Below, in pieces: positions 341 to 34,018 of a stretch of DNA of 36,219 bases. Source of the DNA: Bernardetiaceae bacterium. Its GTDB lineage: Bacteria > Bacteroidota > Bacteroidia > Cytophagales > Bernardetiaceae. Positions within the stretch are counted from its first letter, which is position 1; each line of letters starts with the position of its first letter. The stretch spans positions 1-36,219 of the forward strand of contig JAFIER010000235.1 in NCBI GenBank assembly GCA_020832465.1. The letters run 5' to 3'. The translations under genes were made by a program, and so were the position numbers. Below the pieces are notes generated by a model. That model made no database searches. It had not been told where the DNA came from and saw nothing but the letters and a program-made list of their open reading frames with translations.

Positions 341-1072
341 TTAGAGATATTTAACGCAAAAAAAGGCTATTTTCAAATTTTGAGTTTGTGGTTGGTGTTG
401 GATTTCTATTTGTGTATGACAATCGGGGAGCTGACTATCCTTAACGCTATAGCCTCTCCATATAAGCATAAGTCCCATGACTACGAACCAATAGGGATAT
501 AATCGCCGTACCCAAAACTTAAATTGAGGTTTGAAAAACGAACGCGCCGCACCAGCTGCTGCCATCACAGGTAGTGTGCCGAGCCCAAAAATACCCATAA
601 AAAGTGCACCCGAGGGTCCGTCGCCTGCGGCTACTGCACCGAGTAGAGCTGTATAGACAAGCCCACAAGGTAGCAGACCATTGAGTAATCCTACGACAAA
701 CATACTCGCTGTATTTTTATTGGTGAGTAATTTTCCTAAAACTGCACTAATTCGACGCATTTGCATAGAAAAAAAAGGAATTTTATAAAGCCAAGTATCT
801 AAATTGACAGCCAAAAGCCCTAAAAGTACTAAAATAATTCCAGCCGTCATAGAAATATAGTACTGAAAGCCCACTAAATACAACGCTTGTCCTACCATAC
901 CAATTACTGCCCCCAAGAAAATATAGGTGCTCAAACGCCCTATTTGATAGAGTGCGTGTCTGAGATGCCCTTTTAACCCCTTACCAAAAGGCAGGCTAAG
1001 TGCAATAGGCGCACACATGCCTAAGCAATGTAAGCTACCTAAAAGTCCAGTAATAAAAGCGATGTATAACAT
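341..1072 (-). CDS. TauE/SafE-family (DsbD_2-like) membrane protein of the cbb3 operon
   Basis: The 243-residue protein is almost entirely hydrophobic, with about six membrane segments. It starts with a helix carrying GSLHCLGMC (a CxxxC pair), typical of the small DsbD/UreH-like branch of the 'sulfite exporter TauE/SafE' families. Such proteins are regularly found beside cbb3 oxidase genes and are thought to help cytochrome c or copper maturation; transport of sulfite itself is unproven. It is the last gene of the cco-hemA unit, 42 bases after hemA. The charged, Gln-rich C-terminal tail (about 30 residues) is not part of the conserved membrane core. The family call is good; the exact substrate is unknown. 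Confidence 0.85.
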   Translation of the reverse strand: MLYIAFITGLLGSLHCLGMCAPIALSLPFGKGLKGHLRHALYQIGRLSTYIFLGAVIGMVGQALYLVGFQYYISMTAGIILVLLGLLAVNLDTWLYKIPFFSMQMRRISAVLGKLLTNKNTASMFVVGLLNGLLPCGLVYTALLGAVAAGDGPSGALFMGIFGLGTLPVMAAAGAARSFFKPQFKFWVRRLYPYWFVVMGLMLIWRGYSVKDSQLPDCHTQIEIQHQPQTQNLKIAFFCVKYL

Positions 1073-1114: not shown

Positions 1115-2368
1115 CTAAGCAGTAGCTTCTTTTGCTGGTGCAAATAAGCTATCGAGTATGGCTACAAGTGGTGTAGCATCGCCACTATGGCAAGCTGCTT
1201 TAAGATTTACAGCTGGCATTTTTAATATTTTTTGAATGATATTTTCGGTGGCTTTTTCTAATAATTCAGACTCCTCTGATTTAATTTTTCCTTGATAACG
1301 AGCGAGTTCTTCCTTTCTAATATGCTCGAGCCTTGCTTTGAGTTGTCGTATTGCGTCGTGTAAAATAAGTTCTTCTGTCCACGTAATAAATTCAGCGAAA
1401 GCATCGAGTATAATATTTTCTACTTGTGGTATGGCCGCTTTTCTTTTTGCCATAGTTTCTGCAGAGTGGTTTCTGATGTCATCGATATTATAGAGTACAA
1501 CTTGTGGCATATCGCTCCATTCTGTGCTTACACTACGGGGCACCGAGAGGTCGAAAATAAATTTATACCGATAGGGGGCTATTGTTGCAAGTTTTTGAGG
1601 TGTTATAAAAGCTTCTTTCGTTGCGATAGAAGATATAATCACGTCGGCATCGAGCATAGCCTGCTCTACATTTTCGAAATCAATGACTTCATAAGCGTGT
1701 TCTGAGGCGAGCATAGCAGCTTTAGAGAATGTACGGTTACAGATGCTCACATTTTTGATTTTCATTTTATGCAAATGCCTTACTGTATCCGTACCGATTG
1801 CGCCTACTCCTAAGACCAAAATTTTAGCATTTTCTATATTTTGAATCAAAGCGCGCAATATATCTGCTGTAACGTAAGATACAGAAGCTGCACCGTCTCT
1901 AAACTCTGTTTCTTTGGCTGCTCGTTTATTAGCGTGGCTTATGCTTCGCATAAGTTTATGCAAAAATGCGCCTGCCATAGCCAACTCTTTGCTGAGCTGA
2001 TAGGCTTGTTTTATTTGAAACGAAATTTGTAAATCGCCTACTACACGCGACTCTAAGCCTACGGCTACTCGGAAAAGTCGCATAATTGCTTGCGCTGACT
2101 CTTCCAAATAAGCAAAATGATGTGCGCACTCAGTCTCTATATTTTTATATTGATGCAAAAGCGCAACCACACTGTTCAAAATATTTTGATTAGCGTTGTA
2201 ATATATTTCTGTTCGGTTGCAAGTCGAGACTACAAGTGCTTCTTCAATTTGATGATTATCTTTCAAATCGAGCATAAGCCTCTCGCATTGCATCTCGTCT
2301 AATGCAAAACGTTCGCGCACTTCAATAGGTGCTGTTTTGTGCGATATATATATAACTTTCCAGTTCAT
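1115..2368 (-). CDS. hemA: Glutamyl-tRNA reductase
   Basis: This 417-residue protein is an NADPH-dependent glutamyl-tRNA reductase. It makes glutamate-1-semialdehyde, the first committed step of the C5 route to heme. The catalytic cysteine is in STCNRTE (Cys50). The substrate-domain motif reads GLESRVVGDLQI, where many bacteria have GLDSxVLGEPQI. The NADPH loop is LGVGAIG near residue 185, and CNRTFSKA follows. A C-terminal dimerisation helix region is present, so the length is complete. It starts only 7 bases after ccoH and is followed by the DsbD_2-like gene, so it is built into the oxidase operon. Heme supply is therefore likely co-regulated with a heme-rich enzyme. Confidence 0.96.
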   Translation of the reverse strand: MNWKVIYISHKTAPIEVRERFALDEMQCERLMLDLKDNHQIEEALVVSTCNRTEIYYNANQNILNSVVALLHQYKNIETECAHHFAYLEESAQAIMRLFRVAVGLESRVVGDLQISFQIKQAYQLSKELAMAGAFLHKLMRSISHANKRAAKETEFRDGAASVSYVTADILRALIQNIENAKILVLGVGAIGTDTVRHLHKMKIKNVSICNRTFSKAAMLASEHAYEVIDFENVEQAMLDADVIISSIATKEAFITPQKLATIAPYRYKFIFDLSVPRSVSTEWSDMPQVVLYNIDDIRNHSAETMAKRKAAIPQVENIILDAFAEFITWTEELILHDAIRQLKARLEHIRKEELARYQGKIKSEESELLEKATENIIQKILKMPAVNLKAACHSGDATPLVAILDSLFAPAKEATA

Positions 2369-2375
2369 AAAATAC

Positions 2376-2822
2376 TTATTTTACCCACGTATGTTCTTCA
2401 TAAAAAGATTTTCCATCTTTTTTCCATTGAATTTTGACTTTCCAAAGTCCATTGGCTAAGTCATTGGTGGCTACACTATGTGTAAGTTCTTGCTCGAGCA
2501 CAAAGGGCAGGGTTTTGTCTAAATTTTTATCAGAAGGTCTGAAAAAATAAATTGTACCCTCGGCTTGTGCCGCCTCCTCCGAAAACTCAAAAGCAAGTTG
2601 TTGCTGCTCGCTATCGTGCGCCAACACTATAGGTGCAGCGAGCGAACGCGCATTATTGATGTCATCAATTCTATCTTGATAAGCAATCTCTTCGGCATAA
2701 TATTCAGGTGTTACTAAGTCTATTTTTTGTGTAATAAAGCTAATAACCAAACTCATAATGCCTATCATATAAATCACATAAGTGATAAAAATACCTGTGC
2801 CCCAGTTAAATTTGATTTTCAT
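2376..2822 (-). CDS. ccoH: FixH/CcoH-family cbb3 oxidase assembly protein
   Basis: The 148-residue protein has one N-terminal membrane helix (about residues 9-30: WGTGIFITYVIYMIGIMSLV) and a periplasmic domain. The segment LVTPEYYAEEIAYQDRID after the helix is the FixH/CcoH signature. CcoH is needed for stable assembly of cbb3 oxidase in proteobacteria. It lies between ccoG and hemA on the same strand. The ATG at 2820-2822 is the only sensible start, placed directly before the helix. Confidence 0.92.
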   Translation of the reverse strand: MKIKFNWGTGIFITYVIYMIGIMSLVISFITQKIDLVTPEYYAEEIAYQDRIDDINNARSLAAPIVLAHDSEQQQLAFEFSEEAAQAEGTIYFFRPSDKNLDKTLPFVLEQELTHSVATNDLANGLWKVKIQWKKDGKSFYEEHTWVK

Positions 2823-2871
2823 AATTTTTGATTCTGTTTGATGTGTAGGTGTAATAAAATTTCAATAGTTT

Positions 2872-2919
2872 GATAATCAAGTACAAACATTTTTTAAAAA
2901 CTGTTTGTACTTGATTATC
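2872..2919 (-). other. Perfect 18-bp-arm hairpin between ccoG and ccoH
   Basis: GATAATCAAGTACAAACA (2872-2889) is repeated exactly inverted at 2902-2919 around a 12-base loop. It fills much of the 112-base gap between ccoG and ccoH. No T-run follows the stem on the minus strand, so it looks more like an mRNA processing or stabilising structure than a simple terminator. Confidence 0.7.
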
Positions 2920-2934
2920 CTACAACAGGATTTC

Positions 2935-4362
2935 CTAATTAGGATTCGGACCTAAGAAATTACTCTTGACGACCTTTAATATTCGTTCCTCACTTCTGAC
3001 TTCTATAAGAATATCATTGCGTGCGCCATTGAGCTTTTCAGGTGCAATTTCTATGAAAAAGGCTGCATTAAGTGAGCCTTCACCTCCAAGTATCATTTTT
3101 TCTTGTATAGGAATAAGCTTGCCCTCTGGTTCTAAAAGCACAAATTGAATGGGCAGCTCCTCATCGGTTTTATTGCTAAGTTGTACCGTATAAAGGTTTC
3201 TTACATTACCCTCTTCCGTCATTTGATACGTCTGACCCGCAGTTCTGATAACAACAACCTCTACCGTATTTCTCAAAAGTAGCATACTTGTCATCACACC
3301 CGCCAGAATAAAAAGCACTACCGAGTAGGCAATCATACGTGGAGAGATTTTAAAAGGCAATTTTTCCTCTATTTCACGAGGCGAGGCATAACGAATTAAG
3401 CCTCTTGGGCGATTAAATCTATCCATAATATCATCGCAAGCATCAATACAAGCGGTGCAATTTACACACTCGAGCTGCACACCGTCCCGAATATCAATAC
3501 CCGTAGGGCATACTTTGACACACATATCGCAATCTACGCAATCTCCAAGCTCTTCTTGATTGATATTGCGTTTTACTTTCCCACGTGGCTCACCGCGTAC
3601 ATAATCATAGGCTACGGATATAGAATCCTGACCTAGAAGTACGCCTTGCATACGTCCGTAAGGGCAAACTTGAGTACAAACTTGCTCTCTAAAAAAGGCA
3701 AATACACCATAAAATAGCCCTGTAAAAATGAGTAAACCTGTAAAAAGTCCCCAATTTTCAATCGGACCACTTCTGACAATTTCATACACACGGCTCGGTC
3801 CTACAACATAGGAAAGAAATGTATGAGATATAATCAGCGATATAGCCAAAAATATGGTGTGCTTTGTCGTTTTTTTGAATATTTTTTGATTTGTCCAAGG
3901 CGCTTTGTTCAAGGCACGTTGCTTGCCTGCATCGCCTTCAATCCAGTATTCTATGCGCCTAAATACCATCTCCATAAAAATGGTTTGGGGGCATACCCAG
4001 CCACAAAATACACGTCCATAGACGACAGTAAAAATACCTATAAATACTAAAAACAAAAGTGCACCAATAACAAAAATATAGAAATCTTGTGGTGTAAAAA
4101 GCGTTCCTAAAATATAGAACTTGCGTTCTAAAAGATTAAGCCTAAGTAACGGCAGGCCTCCAATATTGATAAAAGGACCTGTAAATAGAAACGTTAAAAG
4201 TACAACTGATGTAATTTTGCGCCAATTGTAATATCTCCCTTTTGGCTTTGTCGGATAAATCCAAATTCGGTTGCCATCTTTGTCCACATTTGACATGCGG
4301 TCTCGGAAAGATTCCTCTTCTTGCGGTGCGGGGTTGCTATCTTTAAAATCGTTCGGCTTCAT
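2935..4362 (-). CDS. ccoG: Cytochrome c oxidase accessory protein CcoG (Fe-S membrane protein)
   Basis: The 475-residue protein has several membrane helices and a ferredoxin-like core. It carries an N-terminal FCGWVCP motif, a second VCTQVCPYGRMQ motif (NapH-like), and two 4Fe-4S clusters in CVDCDMCVKVCP and CVNCTACIDAC. An Ig-like C-terminal domain lies beyond the last helix (about residue 365 on). CcoG has been described as a cupric reductase supplying Cu(I) for the cbb3 copper centre. The conserved WIYP and YNWRK segments near the N-terminus fit the family, and length is normal. It lies downstream of ccoP across a 260-base gap full of hairpins. Confidence 0.95.
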   Translation of the reverse strand: MKPNDFKDSNPAPQEEESFRDRMSNVDKDGNRIWIYPTKPKGRYYNWRKITSVVLLTFLFTGPFINIGGLPLLRLNLLERKFYILGTLFTPQDFYIFVIGALLFLVFIGIFTVVYGRVFCGWVCPQTIFMEMVFRRIEYWIEGDAGKQRALNKAPWTNQKIFKKTTKHTIFLAISLIISHTFLSYVVGPSRVYEIVRSGPIENWGLFTGLLIFTGLFYGVFAFFREQVCTQVCPYGRMQGVLLGQDSISVAYDYVRGEPRGKVKRNINQEELGDCVDCDMCVKVCPTGIDIRDGVQLECVNCTACIDACDDIMDRFNRPRGLIRYASPREIEEKLPFKISPRMIAYSVVLFILAGVMTSMLLLRNTVEVVVIRTAGQTYQMTEEGNVRNLYTVQLSNKTDEELPIQFVLLEPEGKLIPIQEKMILGGEGSLNAAFFIEIAPEKLNGARNDILIEVRSEERILKVVKSNFLGPNPN

Positions 4363-4622: not shown

Positions 4623-5549
4623 TTAGATTTCTGTCGTCTCTTCTTCCTCTTGCTGCTCCTCTTCTGAAGCATCTGGAAGTTCTTGTGTTTCTTGCTTTTC
4701 GCCTTGCGGTTCTTTAGCATTTGGCGGGTTCGTACCTTGTAGGGTAAGGATATAGCTCGATACTTCTTGCATTTCTTTAGGTGAAAGTTGCGATTGCCAC
4801 GCTAACATACCCTTTTCAGTAACGCCATATTTTACAATTCTGAAAATATCTTTGATATCGCCGCCGTGAATCCAATATTCATCAGTCAAGTTCGGACCTA
4901 CGCCTCCTTGTCCTAAGTCGCCGTGGCAGGCTCTACAGTTGTCCATATAGATTTTCTTACCGTTAGCAATACCAGCATCGCCTTCTGGGAGTGCTGTTAC
5001 AGATTTTTCATCAATAGACATGGCCTGTCGCTTTAAGTAGGCAGCTTTAACGATTTCAGCTTGTGCTAATTCTGCTTTGTATTCAGTAATAGAATCATCG
5101 GCTTTGCCTGTGAAGTGCATATAAGCATATACAAGTGCAAAAATAATAGAGAGGTAGAAACCGTATTTCCACCATGGTGGGAGGTCGTTATCGAGCTCGC
5201 GGATTCCGTCGTAATTGTGGTCGAGCATAACCTCTTTATCGGGCTTAGCAGCATTAAACTTTTGCCAAAACCACTGACCGAAAGTAAGCGATACTTCGGG
5301 TTCTATCTCTTTGCCTTCAGCTTTAGCCTTAGCCATTCTTTTGGCTTTGCCCATAGCACCGACAAGCGAATAAATACTGCCTGCCATACTAAGCAAAAGT
5401 ATGCATACCAATAATATTACACCTGCAAGCAGGAAGAGTGCAAGCTCCTCAGTAGAATAACTCTTAGCAGAAGCTTCCTCTTGTGCCATTGCTGATGCTG
5501 GCAGTAGCATAGCAAGGATAGCGAATAAGGAATATTTAAGATTTTTCAT
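4623..5549 (-). CDS. ccoP: cbb3-type cytochrome c oxidase subunit III, monoheme
   Basis: The 308-residue protein begins with a signal-like helix (about residues 5-22, ending ASAMAQ) and a second helix (about 36-58). It then shows the FixP/CcoP N-terminal signature HNYDGIRELDNDLPPWW (111-127) and a third helix. A single cytochrome c domain has CRACH (205-209) and a probable axial Met at 248 (GMLAW). Classical CcoP has two CxxCH sites; only one is present here. The last about 35 residues are a very acidic Glu-rich tail. Its start overlaps the end of ccoQ by 14 bases, so translation is probably coupled. Confidence 0.94.
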   Translation of the reverse strand: MKNLKYSLFAILAMLLPASAMAQEEASAKSYSTEELALFLLAGVILLVCILLLSMAGSIYSLVGAMGKAKRMAKAKAEGKEIEPEVSLTFGQWFWQKFNAAKPDKEVMLDHNYDGIRELDNDLPPWWKYGFYLSIIFALVYAYMHFTGKADDSITEYKAELAQAEIVKAAYLKRQAMSIDEKSVTALPEGDAGIANGKKIYMDNCRACHGDLGQGGVGPNLTDEYWIHGGDIKDIFRIVKYGVTEKGMLAWQSQLSPKEMQEVSSYILTLQGTNPPNAKEPQGEKQETQELPDASEEEQQEEEETTEI

Positions 5550-5820: not shown

Positions 5821-8019
5821 TTATTTACGTGGGCGTTGCGACTCTGGCGTACCCTTAATGTCCGTACCCAAACGTTGCAAGTAAGCAATCAATGCTATGA
5901 TTTCTCTATCGCTCTTGACTTCAATACCGTCTTTTGCTAAACGTTCCGTAATTTCATCGGCTTGCGCTTTCATCATCTCGTGAACATTGGCTTCTATGCC
6001 CTCTTCATAAGGTACACCTAAGCCACGCAATACTTCAATCTTCTTTTCAATAGAAGAGTTGTTGAGCTGATTACTAATAAGCCAAGGATAAGCAGGCATA
6101 ATCGAACCCGGTGAAATTGATGTAGGCTCAAGCATGTGCTCATAATGCCAAGAATCAGGATATTTACCACCAATGCGGTGTACATCAGGACCTGTACGCT
6201 TAGAACCCCACATAAACGGACGGTCATATACAAACTCGCCTGCCTTAGAGTACTCACCATAGCGTTCGGTTTCCGAACGGAACGGGCGTATCATTTGTGA
6301 ATGACATACTACGCAGTTTTCGCGCATATACAAATCGCGTCCTTGCAACTCAAGAGGCGTATAAGGCATCACAGAGGCTATCGTCGGAACGTTAGATTTG
6401 ACAAGTGCCGTCGGAATAAATTCTATTGCACCACCGATAAGAATGGCAATCGTTGTCCAGAAAAGCATCTGTACAGGGCGACGCTCTATCCAAGTATGCC
6501 AGTGCCCACCGCCGTGAAACTCTTGGTCTTTCAGTGCAGGTGCGCTTGCGCTTTCGGTGCGTACAAGCTCGCCTTGTTTTACAGTTTTGAAGAGGTTATA
6601 AACCATAATCAAAGCACCAGAGAGGTAGAGTGCACCACCAAAGGCACGCATGATATACATCGGTATGATTTGCGTAACGGTTTCTAAGAAGTTTTTGTAC
6701 TTCAAAAATCCACCGTCTGTAAACTCTTTCCACATCAAAGACTGCGTCCAGCCCGCCCAATAAAGCGGAATAGCGTAGAATAAAATACCGAGTGTGCCTA
6801 TCCAAAAATGCGCATTAGCAAGTGATAAGGAGTATAGCTTGGTATTGTAAAGGCGTGGTATCAACCAATAGAGCATACCAAAGGTCAAGAAACCGTTCCA
6901 GCCCAAACCACCTACGTGTACGTGGGCAATAGTCCAGTCCGTATAATGGCTCATAGCATTTACATTCTTAAATGAAAGCATAGGACCTTCAAAAGTTGCC
7001 ATACCGTAAGCCGTAACAGCTACTACAAAAAACTTCAAAACAGGATCAGTACGTACTTTATCCCAAGCACCGCGAAGGGTAAGCAATCCATTGAGCATAC
7101 CACCCCAAGAGGGTGCTATAAGCATCACTGAAAATACAGTACCTAAGGCTTGCGCCCAATCAGGAAGGGCTGTATAAAGCAAATGGTGAGGACCAGCCCA
7201 GATATAAATAAATATCAGTGCCCAATAGTGAATAATTGAAAGACGGTATGAATATACAGGACGGTTCGCTGCCTTAGGAATAAAGTAATACATCAAACCC
7301 AAGAAAGGCGTTGTCAAAAAGAAGGCTACCGCATTGTGTCCATACCACCACTGCACAAGGGCATCTTGAACACCCGCAAACATAGAATAGCTCTTCCAAA
7401 AATCAACAGGTACGGCTAAGGAGTTTACAATATGCAAAACCGCTACGGTTACGAATGTAGCAATATAAAACCAAATCGCTACGTACAAATGACGCTCGCG
7501 ACGGCGCATAATGGTCATAAACATATTCACACCAAAAACTACCCAAATCAAAGCAATCGCAATGTCAAGAGGCCACTCAAGCTCGGCGTATTCTTTCGTA
7601 GTGTTATAACCTAAGGCTAAAGTAACAGCAGCTCCTACAATAATAAGCTGCCAACCCCAAAAGTGAACTCTACCTAATATCTTACTGTACATAGGTGTAC
7701 GGCAAAGACGCTGCAAGGAATAGTAAACACCTGTAAAAATCGCATTGCCAACAAAGGCAAAAATAATCGCATTCGTATGAATAGGACGAACCCTACCAAA
7801 GGTAAGCTCTGCTGTATTCATATTAAACATAGGATGCGCAAGCTCGAGTGCGGCCAGTAAACCGACGAGCATGCCCACAATACCCCAAAAGGCTGTGGCA
7901 AAAGCAAAATCACGCACAATGACATTGTCATATTCAAAGTGCTCTAATTTGGGGGGCTTACTTACCCTCCCCGCCTGCTGTTGCAGATTCTGTTCCGTCG
8001 TCATTTTGTTGTCTTTCAT
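5821..8019 (-). CDS. ccoNO: cbb3-type cytochrome c oxidase, fused subunits I and II (CcoNO)
   Basis: This 732-residue fusion is the catalytic core of a high-affinity terminal oxidase. The N-terminal part (about 1-500) is CcoN with about 12 membrane helices and metal-ligand histidines in RPIHTNA, WWYGHNA, GPHHLLY and WTIAHVHVGG. The C-terminal part (about 530-732) is CcoO: one membrane helix, then ENCVVCHSQM with the heme c site CVVCH (about 569-573) and a probable Met ligand in GSIMPAYPWL. Fusion of ccoN and ccoO is known in Bacteroidota. The longest frame begins at TTG 8026-8028; ATG 8017-8019 (used here) or ATG 8002-8004 is more likely. All of these overlap the end of ccoS. Confidence 0.96.
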   Translation of the reverse strand: MKDNKMTTEQNLQQQAGRVSKPPKLEHFEYDNVIVRDFAFATAFWGIVGMLVGLLAALELAHPMFNMNTAELTFGRVRPIHTNAIIFAFVGNAIFTGVYYSLQRLCRTPMYSKILGRVHFWGWQLIIVGAAVTLALGYNTTKEYAELEWPLDIAIALIWVVFGVNMFMTIMRRRERHLYVAIWFYIATFVTVAVLHIVNSLAVPVDFWKSYSMFAGVQDALVQWWYGHNAVAFFLTTPFLGLMYYFIPKAANRPVYSYRLSIIHYWALIFIYIWAGPHHLLYTALPDWAQALGTVFSVMLIAPSWGGMLNGLLTLRGAWDKVRTDPVLKFFVVAVTAYGMATFEGPMLSFKNVNAMSHYTDWTIAHVHVGGLGWNGFLTFGMLYWLIPRLYNTKLYSLSLANAHFWIGTLGILFYAIPLYWAGWTQSLMWKEFTDGGFLKYKNFLETVTQIIPMYIMRAFGGALYLSGALIMVYNLFKTVKQGELVRTESASAPALKDQEFHGGGHWHTWIERRPVQMLFWTTIAILIGGAIEFIPTALVKSNVPTIASVMPYTPLELQGRDLYMRENCVVCHSQMIRPFRSETERYGEYSKAGEFVYDRPFMWGSKRTGPDVHRIGGKYPDSWHYEHMLEPTSISPGSIMPAYPWLISNQLNNSSIEKKIEVLRGLGVPYEEGIEANVHEMMKAQADEITERLAKDGIEVKSDREIIALIAYLQRLGTDIKGTPESQRPRK

Positions 8020-8155
8020 CGTTTTCAAATAAAATTCGCATACCCGGAGTTGTTGTATCTTCGTACTGACCGCTCTTTACCGACCACAAAAAGGCAGTAA
8101 GAAAACCGACAGCGACAAGGAGACTGACTCCAATAAGAATAAATATAATTTGCAT
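7958..8155 (-). CDS. ccoS: cbb3-type oxidase assembly protein CcoS
   Basis: The 65-residue protein has one N-terminal helix (about 2-26, IIFILIGVSLLVAVGFLTAF) followed by the CcoS-type WSVKSGQYEDTTTPGMRILFE. CcoS is required for cofactor insertion into cbb3 oxidase. It is the first gene of the operon, and its last codons overlap the start of ccoNO by about 60 bases. Its usual partner ccoI (copper P-type ATPase) is not next to it. The ATG is at 8153-8155, about 20 bases after the predicted proximal transcription start. Confidence 0.9.
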   Translation of the reverse strand: MQIIFILIGVSLLVAVGFLTAFLWSVKSGQYEDTTTPGMRILFENDERQQNDDGTESATAGGEGK

Positions 8156-8181
8156 GTCTGTTGGGCTTTTATTAGCTTATA

Positions 8182-8268
8182 CAAAGGTACTAAGCCTACA
8201 GGCTAATTCCTATGACATTTGTCAGGTTCGAATATGATATTTGTCATATAGAAACCTGATAAATATCA
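8182..8268 (-). promoter_or_regulatory. Proximal cco promoter with three phased Fnr/Crp-type operators
   Basis: On the minus strand TACCTTTG (8189-8182) matches the Bacteroidota -7 element TAnnTTTG. Upstream lie three inverted repeats of form TGAY-N4-RTCA: TGACATTTGTCA (8213-8224), TGATATTTGTCA (8235-8246) and TGATAAATATCA (8257-8268), each 22 bp apart. With a start site about 6 bases past the -7 element, the first operator is centred near -42. That is the class II activator position of Fnr/Crp proteins, and it takes the place of a recognisable -33 element. The spacing matches the Fnr half-site layout TTGAT-N4-ATCAA. The regulator itself is not in the window. Confidence 0.75.
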
Positions 8269-8319
8269 GTTTTTGCAAAATTAAGATAGGCTGGCGTAGC
8301 CTACTCATTTTTACATTTA

Positions 8320-8407
8320 CAAATATACTTATGTTTATTGGTAAATACTATGACATTTGTCAGGGTTTGACTATGACTTTTGTCAGGTTCAAATATGACA
8401 AAAGTCA
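8320..8407 (-). promoter_or_regulatory. Distal duplicate of the cco promoter/operator module
   Basis: A second minus-strand -7 element TATATTTG (8327-8320) is followed by TGACATTTGTCA (8351-8362), TGACTTTTGTCA (8374-8385) and TGACAAAAGTCA (8396-8407). From the -7 element to the first operator is 31 bases, identical to the proximal module, and the whole arrangement is shifted by 138 bp. Flanking bases are partly shared (GGTTCGAATATGA versus GGTTCAAATATGA), which points to a tandem duplication. Being between divergent genes, the operators could also affect the gene starting at 8560. Confidence 0.7.
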
Positions 8408-8559
8408 TACTTTTGATAAAAAATACCATAAAAACACTAAATAATTCTTAAACAATTTGCTTCTAAAACAGATAATATGTAATTGTTTGCAAAAAAAGAG
8501 TATGTTTGAGTAGATTTGCACGCTTATTTATTTATACCTTTTACAGTCCCCTTATTGTC

Positions 8560-9693
8560 ATGTTAAAATGGCTTTTTCGCTTGAGCTGTCTCTGTATTTT
8601 ATTACACATATCTATGGAGAAGGCATCGGCACAAAGTTTTATCGGTCGTTATATCAATAATTTTATTAAAGATACAAGCGATATTGCAAAACCGCAGTTT
8701 TTGGTGTATCCAACTTTAGCCTATTCCCCAGAGACAAGCTGGGAGATTGGTTTGAGCACACTGCAAGTGTTTTATGCTAATCGCGATACGACAAACCGAT
8801 TGAGCGAAATCAATGGTTTTACATTCTTTACCTTAGAAAATCAGTATGGATTGTGGTTCGACCAAGCAATTTATACACACGAAGACAAATGGTTTTTCTT
8901 AGGGCGAACTCGCTTGCAGAGTTTTCCACTTTTTTATTACGGCATTGGTATGGATACGCCGAGCGAATATACAGCAAGGGTAGATGCCAATCAGATATTG
9001 CTCAAGCAGCGTGTATTGCGCAAAGTCAAAAAAGATTTTTTTATTGGTTTAGAACTTGATTTTCAACGTATAAGCCGTGTAAACTTTGTGCCTGCTGATG
9101 AAGCCAACCCGCCCTACTTACCACTTGGTGCTATGGGCTCGAACAATTTTGGTGTAGGTTTGGGGATTGTTTATGACAATCGGCATAATGTCTTAAATGT
9201 GCGTGATGGTTTTTTCTCTGAGTTAGGGTTTTTGCATTATAGTCCTCATTTGAGTACTTTTAGATTCAATACTTTGATTTCTGATACAAGGATATTTCGT
9301 CCGGTAGGTAGAAATAACGTATTGGCCGGGCAGCTCCTCGGTCAGTTTAGCAGGGGCGATGTGCCTTTCAATCAATTAGCTTTAATGGGTGGAGAAAGTA
9401 TGATGCGCGGCTACTATACTGGGCGGTTCCGGGATAACAATCAAATAGCCGCACAAGCCGAAATGCGATTTTTACCCTTACCCTTAGGTTTTAGCAAACG
9501 CATAGGCGCAAGCGTATTTGGAAGTATGGCAACGGTTTTTGATAGGGATTTCTCTGCCCAAAATTTTGTATGGGCGGGTGGCGCAGGTTTGCGTTTTTTG
9601 GTTTTCCCCAAGAAGGATATTTTTACACGTGTAGATTTTGCACTTACCAAAGAGGGAAATGGGCTTTATATATTCATTGGAGAATCTTTTTGA
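8560..9693 (+). CDS. Omp85/BamA-TamA-family outer membrane beta-barrel protein (no POTRA)
   Basis: Starting at ATG 8560 the protein has 377 residues with a signal peptide (MLKWLFRLSCLCILL...ASAQ). The frame is open further up to a TTG at 8506, but that would bury the signal peptide. The mature part is rich in alternating beta strands and has the surface-antigen barrel motif GGESMMRGYYTGRF, the counterpart of the (V)RGY/F loop-6 motif of Omp85 proteins, and FDRNH-like DNRHN turns. There is no room for POTRA domains, so it is a stand-alone barrel of the Bac_surface_Ag type. Its cargo is unknown. It is divergent from the oxidase operon and probably co-transcribed with the S66 peptidase gene 36 bases downstream. 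Confidence 0.85.
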   Translation: MLKWLFRLSCLCILLHISMEKASAQSFIGRYINNFIKDTSDIAKPQFLVYPTLAYSPETSWEIGLSTLQVFYANRDTTNRLSEINGFTFFTLENQYGLWFDQAIYTHEDKWFFLGRTRLQSFPLFYYGIGMDTPSEYTARVDANQILLKQRVLRKVKKDFFIGLELDFQRISRVNFVPADEANPPYLPLGAMGSNNFGVGLGIVYDNRHNVLNVRDGFFSELGFLHYSPHLSTFRFNTLISDTRIFRPVGRNNVLAGQLLGQFSRGDVPFNQLALMGGESMMRGYYTGRFRDNNQIAAQAEMRFLPLPLGFSKRIGASVFGSMATVFDRDFSAQNFVWAGGAGLRFLVFPKKDIFTRVDFALTKEGNGLYIFIGESF

Positions 9694-33415: not shown

Positions 33416-33970
33416 TTATTCTTTGTTATTTTCCTCCTCCTCTTCTTCCAAAAAGCTATAATAAGCCCTGCCAAGCTCAAAGAATCCAAAATCCTCACGA
33501 TAAAAAGCAAATATAGACTGAATTTGTTTTTGTTGCAAAGATGCTAAGGCTTGCATGACTTTGCTTTTGAGTTTTGTATTTTCTTCAAAAATTTCCATTA
33601 AACTCACTTGGGGTAGGATATAAAGTTGGTTATCTTCTTGCTTACAAATAGCATTATACAAACGATGCGAACGTGGTAATAGTGCATTTTCGCCAAAGTG
33701 CATGCCGCTTTTGAGTAAGGCTAAGGGTTCAAAACTGTCATCTATATCGAGTTGCAACGCAACCCTTCCTTTCTTGAGTAGATAAAGAGCTTGGCTCGGG
33801 TCATTTCTAAAAAAAACAACTTCGTTTTTGCCATAACTGCGTTGGTGCAGATGCGGTATAAAATTGAGAAGCTCTTCGTTTGATAAATCTTTAAAAATAG
33901 GATTTTTACGCAAGAAATTCATAATTTCTTTTTCTTGCTGTGAGTAGGTGCGTGCAAAGGGATTAAACAT
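33416..33970 (-). CDS. Cyclic-nucleotide-binding-domain protein without HTH
   Basis: From ATG 33968-33970 it encodes 184 residues (the frame is open three codons further to a TTG). One Crp-type beta-roll spans about 20-140: FKDLSNEELLNFIPHL, VVFFRNDPSQALYLLKKGRVAL, a GMHFGENALLPRSHRLYNAICK segment matching the FGE..L...R.A phosphate-binding pattern, and YILPQVSLMEIF. After a helix (about 140-165) it ends in an acidic Glu-rich tail; no helix-turn-helix is present. It is not a DNA-binding Crp/Fnr protein and so is not the regulator of the cco operators. Its role is unknown. Confidence 0.85.
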   Translation of the reverse strand: MFNPFARTYSQQEKEIMNFLRKNPIFKDLSNEELLNFIPHLHQRSYGKNEVVFFRNDPSQALYLLKKGRVALQLDIDDSFEPLALLKSGMHFGENALLPRSHRLYNAICKQEDNQLYILPQVSLMEIFEENTKLKSKVMQALASLQQKQIQSIFAFYREDFGFFELGRAYYSFLEEEEEENNKE

Positions 33971-34018
33971 GGTATTCAAAAGGCTTCTGTTTTTGAGAAA
34001 TATTTTTCTAAGTTAATA

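What the first reader, a model, noticed from the sequence alone, without database searches (positions are those of the whole stretch)
8182..8407. Tandemly duplicated promoter with two arrays of three Fnr-like operators in front of the cbb3 operon
Six TGAY-N4-RTCA inverted repeats form two triplets with internal spacings of 22/22 and 23/22 bp, about two helical turns. Each triplet lies exactly 31 bases from a minus-strand TAnnTTTG element (8182-8189 and 8320-8327), and the two modules are offset by 138 bp. The first operator of each module falls near -42, the class II activator position of Fnr/Crp proteins. All this is visible directly. That an Fnr-like oxygen or redox regulator acts here is inference from the half-site layout and the gene controlled. 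Phased triple operators in duplicated promoters are unusual and suggest cooperative or filament-like binding.
Basis: partly seen in the sequence, partly recalled or inferred. Interest (0 to 1): 0.78.

Follow-up and report, generated by a model that had tools for sequence, protein, structure and literature searches.

The report
Duplicated Fnr-operator promoter of cbb3 oxidase
Six copies of an oxygen-regulator binding site sit in two evenly spaced triplets before the genes for a low-oxygen respiratory enzyme; this is an enlarged version of a two-site switch that turns out to be shared across the bacterial phylum Bacteroidota.

Summary
Six perfect TGAY-N4-RTCA palindromes form two triplets (spacings 22/22 and 23/22 bp). 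Each triplet ends 23 nt before a minus-strand TAnnTTTG box, and both modules face the ccoS-ccoNO-ccoP-ccoG-ccoH operon. Using the published position of TAnnTTTG (-12 to -5), the sites lie at -41.5/-63.5/-85.5 and -41.5/-64.5/-86.5.

Comparison turns the guess into a well-supported model. Of 107 cco loci, 87 carry such a site (control mean 5). In 63 of 79 non-redundant loci a partner lies 22/23 bp away (0-7 at control offsets). The gap to TAnnTTTG peaks at exactly 23 nt. The genome has one full Fnr-type regulator; its orthologues are linked to cco operons in many relatives. The same composite promoter precedes hemN, universal stress protein, ccoI, hydroxyacid dehydrogenase and Hsp20 genes elsewhere in the phylum.

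So a 22-bp tandem double operator before a class II promoter is a Bacteroidota-wide feature; the window's three sites at each of two promoters is unique among 107 cco loci. Fnr control of cbb3 is known; the tandem architecture appears undescribed in the open literature searched. Cooperative binding is likely but unproven; filament formation has no support.

The parts
8213..8224 (-). operator A1 TGACAAATGTCA, centre about -41.5 of promoter A
   Evidence: position inferred from the -7 box
8235..8246 (-). operator A2 TGACAAATATCA, centre about -63.5
8257..8268 (-). operator A3 TGATATTTATCA, centre about -85.5
8182..8189 (-). promoter A -7 box TACCTTTG; predicted start about 8177; no TTTG at -33
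   Evidence: box position from PMC9723704
8351..8362 (-). operator B1 TGACAAATGTCA, centre about -41.5 of promoter B
8374..8385 (-). operator B2 TGACAAAAGTCA, centre about -64.5
8396..8407 (-). operator B3 TGACTTTTGTCA, centre about -86.5
8320..8327 (-). promoter B -7 box TATATTTG; predicted start about 8315
7958..8155 (-). ccoS (FixS, cbb3 maturation), first gene of the operon
   Evidence: PF03597 E=2.8e-20
5821..8028 (-). ccoNO fusion (COX1 + FixO)
4623..5549 (-). ccoP (FixP_N, cytochrome c)
2935..4362 (-). ccoG (Fer4_18, FixG_C)
2376..2822 (-). ccoH (FixH)
1115..2368 (-). hemA-type glutamyl-tRNA reductase, same strand directly downstream; operon membership inferred
341..1072 (-). DsbD_2 membrane protein, same strand; operon membership inferred

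Best explanation
The region holds two tandem, oxygen-controlled class II promoters of the cbb3 oxidase operon. In each, an Fnr-family dimer at about -41.5 replaces the missing -33 element and recruits RNA polymerase to a TAnnTTTG box. A second and a third dimer bind two and four helical turns further upstream on the same face of the DNA and probably bind cooperatively with the first. The effect would be a strong, steep rise of oxidase production when oxygen falls. The two-dimer arrangement is ancestral or recurrent across Bacteroidota; this lineage added a third site and duplicated the module. Shown: sites, spacing, box distance, phylum-wide conservation, a regulator gene of the right family, and its linkage to cco in relatives. 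Inferred: transcription starts, binding by this regulator, cooperativity, oxygen response.
For: Sites, counts and chance level. 87/107 cco loci have the strict site within 600 bp against a control mean of 5; spacings between strict sites peak at 22 (20) and 23 (9), of which the window itself gives 4, against 0 in controls. The operator-to-TAnnTTTG gap peaks at 23 (9) and 45 (23). 63/79 non-redundant loci, window excluded, have a partner site at 22/23, against 0-7 at control offsets. The composite promoter is found 53 times in 28 of 296 Bacteroidota genomes, with no match to the reversed pattern, before ccoS/ccoN, ccoI, hemN, USP, Hsp20 and hydroxyacid dehydrogenase genes. With the inner gap left free from 0 to 30, 128 of 150 listed matches fall at about 21-23 bp spacing. 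One full Crp/Fnr regulator in the genome, aligned to solved FNR, with the E209, R213 and C122 equivalents conserved in orthologues. An fnr-like gene within about 12 kb of ccoN in about 21 relatives (coordinates). In F. psychrophilum cbb3 is strongly induced by oxygen limitation (PMC9723704).
Against: No transcription start, binding or expression data for this organism. The regulator gene is on another contig here, and its third N-terminal cysteine is not conserved in all orthologues, so its oxygen-sensing cluster is unproven. Two Flavobacteriaceae loci (L121, L122) keep only the proximal site, so the distal site is not indispensable everywhere.
Confidence: 0.86

Rival explanations
1. The regulator at these sites is not the Fnr of contig C27 but another Crp-family protein, for example the C203 protein or the truncated one next to ccoI. 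The promoter logic stays, the signal differs.
For: A second Crp-like protein with a partial HTH match and a truncated cNMP-domain gene directly after ccoI exist in this genome; REC-Crp fusions beside FixL-like kinases lie near cco in relatives.
Against: The C27 protein is the only one above the HTH_Crp_2 cut-off, and its orthologues in seven same-family genomes lie about 7.5-8 kb from ccoN on the same contig.
Confidence: 0.2
2. The extra sites are not cooperative activating sites but brakes: the upstream dimers limit or shut off expression at full anaerobiosis, as upstream FNR does at E. coli yfiD (own knowledge), giving a microaerobic window.
For: The cbb3 oxidase is useful only in low, not zero, oxygen; a dimer at -63.5 occupies DNA where alpha-CTD lies at simple class II promoters (established knowledge, inference).
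Against: In the panel the distal site is the stronger one and the proximal one is often degenerate (strict distal 25/35, strict proximal 8/35), which fits recruitment to a weak activating site better than a brake.
Confidence: 0.2
3. The second module is a decaying relic of a local duplication without function of its own.
For: A duplicated promoter is seen in only 1 of 107 loci.
Against: All six palindromes and both -7 boxes are intact while the spacers have diverged to 12/23 identity, so selection has probably kept the elements in both.
Confidence: 0.1
4. A chance or low-complexity repeat cluster.
For: AT-rich intergenic region, 29% GC.
Against: 0.058 sites per kb expected and no 22/23 pair in 3 Mb simulated; conserved across the phylum.
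Confidence: 0.01

Closest known systems
Class II FNR/ANR/FixK-activated ccoNOQP (fixNOQP) promoters of Proteobacteria, e.g. Sphingopyxis granuli ccoN, Fnr box at -41.5 (PMC7713065)
   Same: TGA-N6-TCA-type palindrome centred at -41.5 of a cbb3 operon; regulon also has hemN and uspA
   Different: one box is listed for that promoter; here 22-bp-spaced tandem boxes, three per promoter, two promoters, and a Bacteroidota TAnnTTTG box instead of a -10
Bacteroidota sigma-A promoters (TAnnTTTG at -12 to -5; PMC9723704)
   Same: same -7 box
   Different: no TTTG at -33; its place is taken by the operator
E. coli promoters with two FNR or CRP sites (class III, yfiD; own knowledge)
   Same: more than one dimer of one regulator per promoter
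   Different: known pairs are usually spaced further apart, about 30-60 bp; here 22/23 bp, so neighbouring dimers should touch

Membership tests
Class II Fnr-dependent promoter | TGA-N6-TCA palindrome of the Fnr type | tested here: met
Class II Fnr-dependent promoter | centred near -41.5 from the transcription start | tested here: inconclusive
   exactly -41.5 if TAnnTTTG lies at -12 to -5; start not mapped in this organism
Class II Fnr-dependent promoter | weak or missing -35/-33 element | tested here: met
   no TTTG at -33 in either module; none conserved in the panel profile
Class II Fnr-dependent promoter | controlled by an Fnr protein in response to oxygen | not testable with these tools
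   needs expression data; cbb3 induction by oxygen limitation is shown only in F. psychrophilum
Fnr protein (C27 gene, L035:1162-1881 minus) | cNMP-type sensor fold plus Crp HTH | tested here: met
   PF00027 E=2e-20, PF13545 E=3.1e-17
Fnr protein (C27 gene, L035:1162-1881 minus) | recognition helix with E209 and R213 (FNR numbering) | tested here: met
   S212 is Ile here, consistent with no conserved outer T in the operators.
Fnr protein (C27 gene, L035:1162-1881 minus) | four cysteine ligands of an oxygen-labile 4Fe-4S cluster | tested here: inconclusive
   C-x2-C-x8-C and the C122 equivalent are present here; the third N-terminal Cys is missing in several orthologues
Bacteroidota tandem double-operator promoter (defined here) | two TGA-N6-TCA at 22/23 bp, then 23 nt, then TAnnTTTG | tested here: met
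   both modules, and ccoI of the same genome with one mismatch

The most novel reading that the evidence does not exclude
Bacteroidota use a phylum-wide two-dimer promoter class in which a strong Fnr site at -63.5 loads a second dimer onto a weak site at -41.5. Different oxygen sensors (a cysteine-bearing Fnr, or a FixL-like kinase with a REC-Crp fusion) feed the same DNA architecture, and the window genome has scaled it to three dimers at each of two promoters to steepen or strengthen the response.
Probability: 0.5. Interest if true: 0.65.

Novelty: new variant of a known kind. Interest (0 to 1): 0.52.

Why it matters
Oxygen control in Bacteroidota is poorly characterised in the literature I could search, although their cbb3 oxidase is central to life at low oxygen. 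The composite motif (two sites at 22/23 bp, 23 nt, TAnnTTTG) gives almost no matches by chance and can be used to read out candidate low-oxygen regulons in Bacteroidota genomes. It also offers a clean test of how stacked Crp-family dimers activate one polymerase, because natural one-, two- and three-site versions exist.

Tried and rejected
The strict single-site scan TGAYWWWWGTCA gives many hits, most inside genes or beside unrelated genes; single sites were not used as evidence. The perfect pair on C174 lies inside a gene and is GC-richer: taken as chance. Triplets in other genomes: G244 looks like coding repeats, G212 is two back-to-back pairs between ccoI and a FixL-like kinase, G065 is before a YceI-like gene; none is a duplicated cco promoter. 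A plus-strand reading of B1/B2 with TACTTTTG at 8408-8415 was considered as a divergent promoter and set aside, because B3 would lie at about -18. Rfam gave nothing for the C155 transcript, and its DNA search in relatives gave only weak partial hits. Literature searches for Bacteroidota Fnr/cbb3 regulation found no description of the tandem operator; most subscription papers are not covered. Filament-like binding was set aside as unneeded.

Full report
Observation. The window has no other TGAY-N4-RTCA, and the whole-window chance expectation is 1.34; in sequence simulated with the composition of the intergenic region the density is 0.058 per kb and no pair at 22/23 bp arose in 3 Mb. In the 4.6-Mb genome a two-site scan with up to one mismatch and a 10-bp inner gap finds only three places: this promoter, one intergenic place on contig C155 and the ccoI gene on C249.

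Surroundings. The minus-strand genes read ccoS, ccoNO (fused), ccoP, ccoG, ccoH, a glutamyl-tRNA reductase and a DsbD_2 membrane protein. The plus-strand neighbour at 8506-9693 is an Omp85-superfamily protein. In Flavobacterium psychrophilum the TAnnTTTG box lies at -12 to -5 (PMC9723704). Applying that here gives starts at 8177 and 8315 and operator centres at -41.5/-63.5/-85.5 and -41.5/-64.5/-86.5. Neither module has TTTG at -33. This is the anatomy of an activator-dependent class II promoter; the coordinates of the starts are inferred.

Conservation. I took 110 loci around ccoN: the window's own, 29 from relatives' genomes and 80 from named genome contigs. Of 107 with enough sequence, 87 have a strict site within 600 bp upstream of ccoN, against a mean of 5 and a maximum of 12 in composition-matched controls. 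Distances between strict sites peak at 22 (20 cases) and 23 (9), four of these from the window itself, with no other value below 36, and no 22/23 pairs in controls. The distance from operator edge to TAnnTTTG peaks at 23 nt (9) and 45 nt (23), that is 23 and 23+22. In many loci of the 45-nt group a degenerate TGA-N6-TCA lies 22 bp downstream of the strict one; with one mismatch allowed, 63 of 79 non-redundant loci have a partner at 22/23, against 0-7 at control offsets. Anchored on the box instead, 35 loci show the double site, null mean 0.12; the distal site is strict in 25, the proximal in only 8. All eight same-family genomes with ccoN keep the arrangement with the exact 23-nt gap, seven of them in a form where each site has one mismatch.

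Beyond cco. The composite of two TGA-N6-TCA with a 10-11 nt inner gap, 22-24 nt and TAnnTTTG occurs 53 times in 28 of 296 Bacteroidota genomes; the reversed pattern occurs in none. First downstream genes include ccoS/ccoN, ccoI, a D-lactate-type hydroxyacid dehydrogenase followed in one case by hemN, universal stress proteins, Hsp20, YceI-like and cytochrome c proteins (assignments by reading the translated sequences, not by a profile search). ccoN, hemN and uspA are also class II Fnr targets in Sphingopyxis (PMC7713065). Letting the inner gap vary from 0 to 30, 128 of the 150 listed matches have lengths equal to 21-23 bp spacing, with a small second group near 32-33 bp, three turns (list truncated by the tool). 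Spacing therefore seems constrained in helical turns.

Regulator. The genome has one Crp-family protein above the HTH_Crp_2 cut-off, 239 aa on contig C27, with both Pfam domains and alignment to solved FNR from residue 11 on. It has C-x2-C-x8-C near the N terminus and a cysteine at the FNR C122 position. The equivalents of FNR E209 and R213 are invariant in the 30 proteins aligned, and S212 is Ile in all but three, which fits operators without a conserved outer T. The third N-terminal cysteine is not universal, so the cluster is unproven. In about 21 relatives an orthologue or related Crp protein lies within about 12 kb of ccoN; in seven same-family genomes it is about 7.5-8 kb away on the same contig, and in G035 it is divergent and adjacent (coordinates, compared by eye).

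What is special here. Triplets with one mismatch allowed occur at 2 of 107 cco loci (the window, and a degenerate one in L110), and two complete double-site promoters at one cco operon occur only in the window. Strict triplets occur in 4 of 395 Bacteroidota genomes and only the window has them at cco twice. The modules align over their whole length, with spacers at 12/23 identity while all operators and boxes are intact. I read this as an old local duplication kept by selection.

Mechanism. Most likely an Fnr dimer at -41.5 contacts polymerase directly, and dimers one and two steps upstream, on the same DNA face and close enough to touch, bind cooperatively, so that two or three dimers assemble for full activity. 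The strong-distal, weak-proximal pattern in the phylum supports loading of the activating site by its neighbour. A braking role of the upstream dimers is the main rival. Nothing here tests filaments, and none are needed.

Novelty. Fnr-type control of cbb3 is established knowledge. A phased tandem operator as the common form in a whole phylum, and its six-site extreme, I could not find described (open-access text only). I rate it a new variant of a known kind.

Noticed in passing
L001 (own genome, C155) 1286-1534, minus strand: A perfect double Fnr operator with the same 23-nt gap to TACTTTTG (start about 1465) faces no gene for 600 bp but a terminator-like hairpin plus T-run about 175 nt downstream; the transcript folds better than shuffles (z -3.8). 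Candidate Fnr-activated small RNA, conserved only weakly.
   Followed up: partly
L031 / L193 (own genome, C249) 1501-1565: The ccoI copper ATPase gene has the canonical pair: strict distal site, one-mismatch proximal site, 23 nt, TATTTTTG.
   Followed up: yes
L040 (own genome, C249) 1417-1842: A gene with a cNMP-binding domain starts directly after ccoI and is cut by the contig end: a possible further Crp-family regulator.
   Followed up: no
L192 (G040) 1498-3549: A REC-Crp fusion protein next to a FixL-like PAS histidine kinase near cco, as if FixJ and FixK functions were joined in one protein (domains read by eye). Similar 350-380 aa Crp proteins appear near cco in other relatives.
   Followed up: partly
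L158 (G212) and matches in G121, G343, G448, G505: Operator arrays shared by divergent promoters; in G212 four sites form two back-to-back pairs between ccoI and a FixL-like kinase gene.
   Followed up: partly
window 33416-33979, minus strand: A cNMP-binding-domain protein of 187 aa without a recognisable DNA-binding domain, in the same window.
   Followed up: no
one search matches of 75-76 nt (e.g. G558, G448, G520): A minor class of double operators spaced about 32-33 bp, three helical turns.
   Followed up: no
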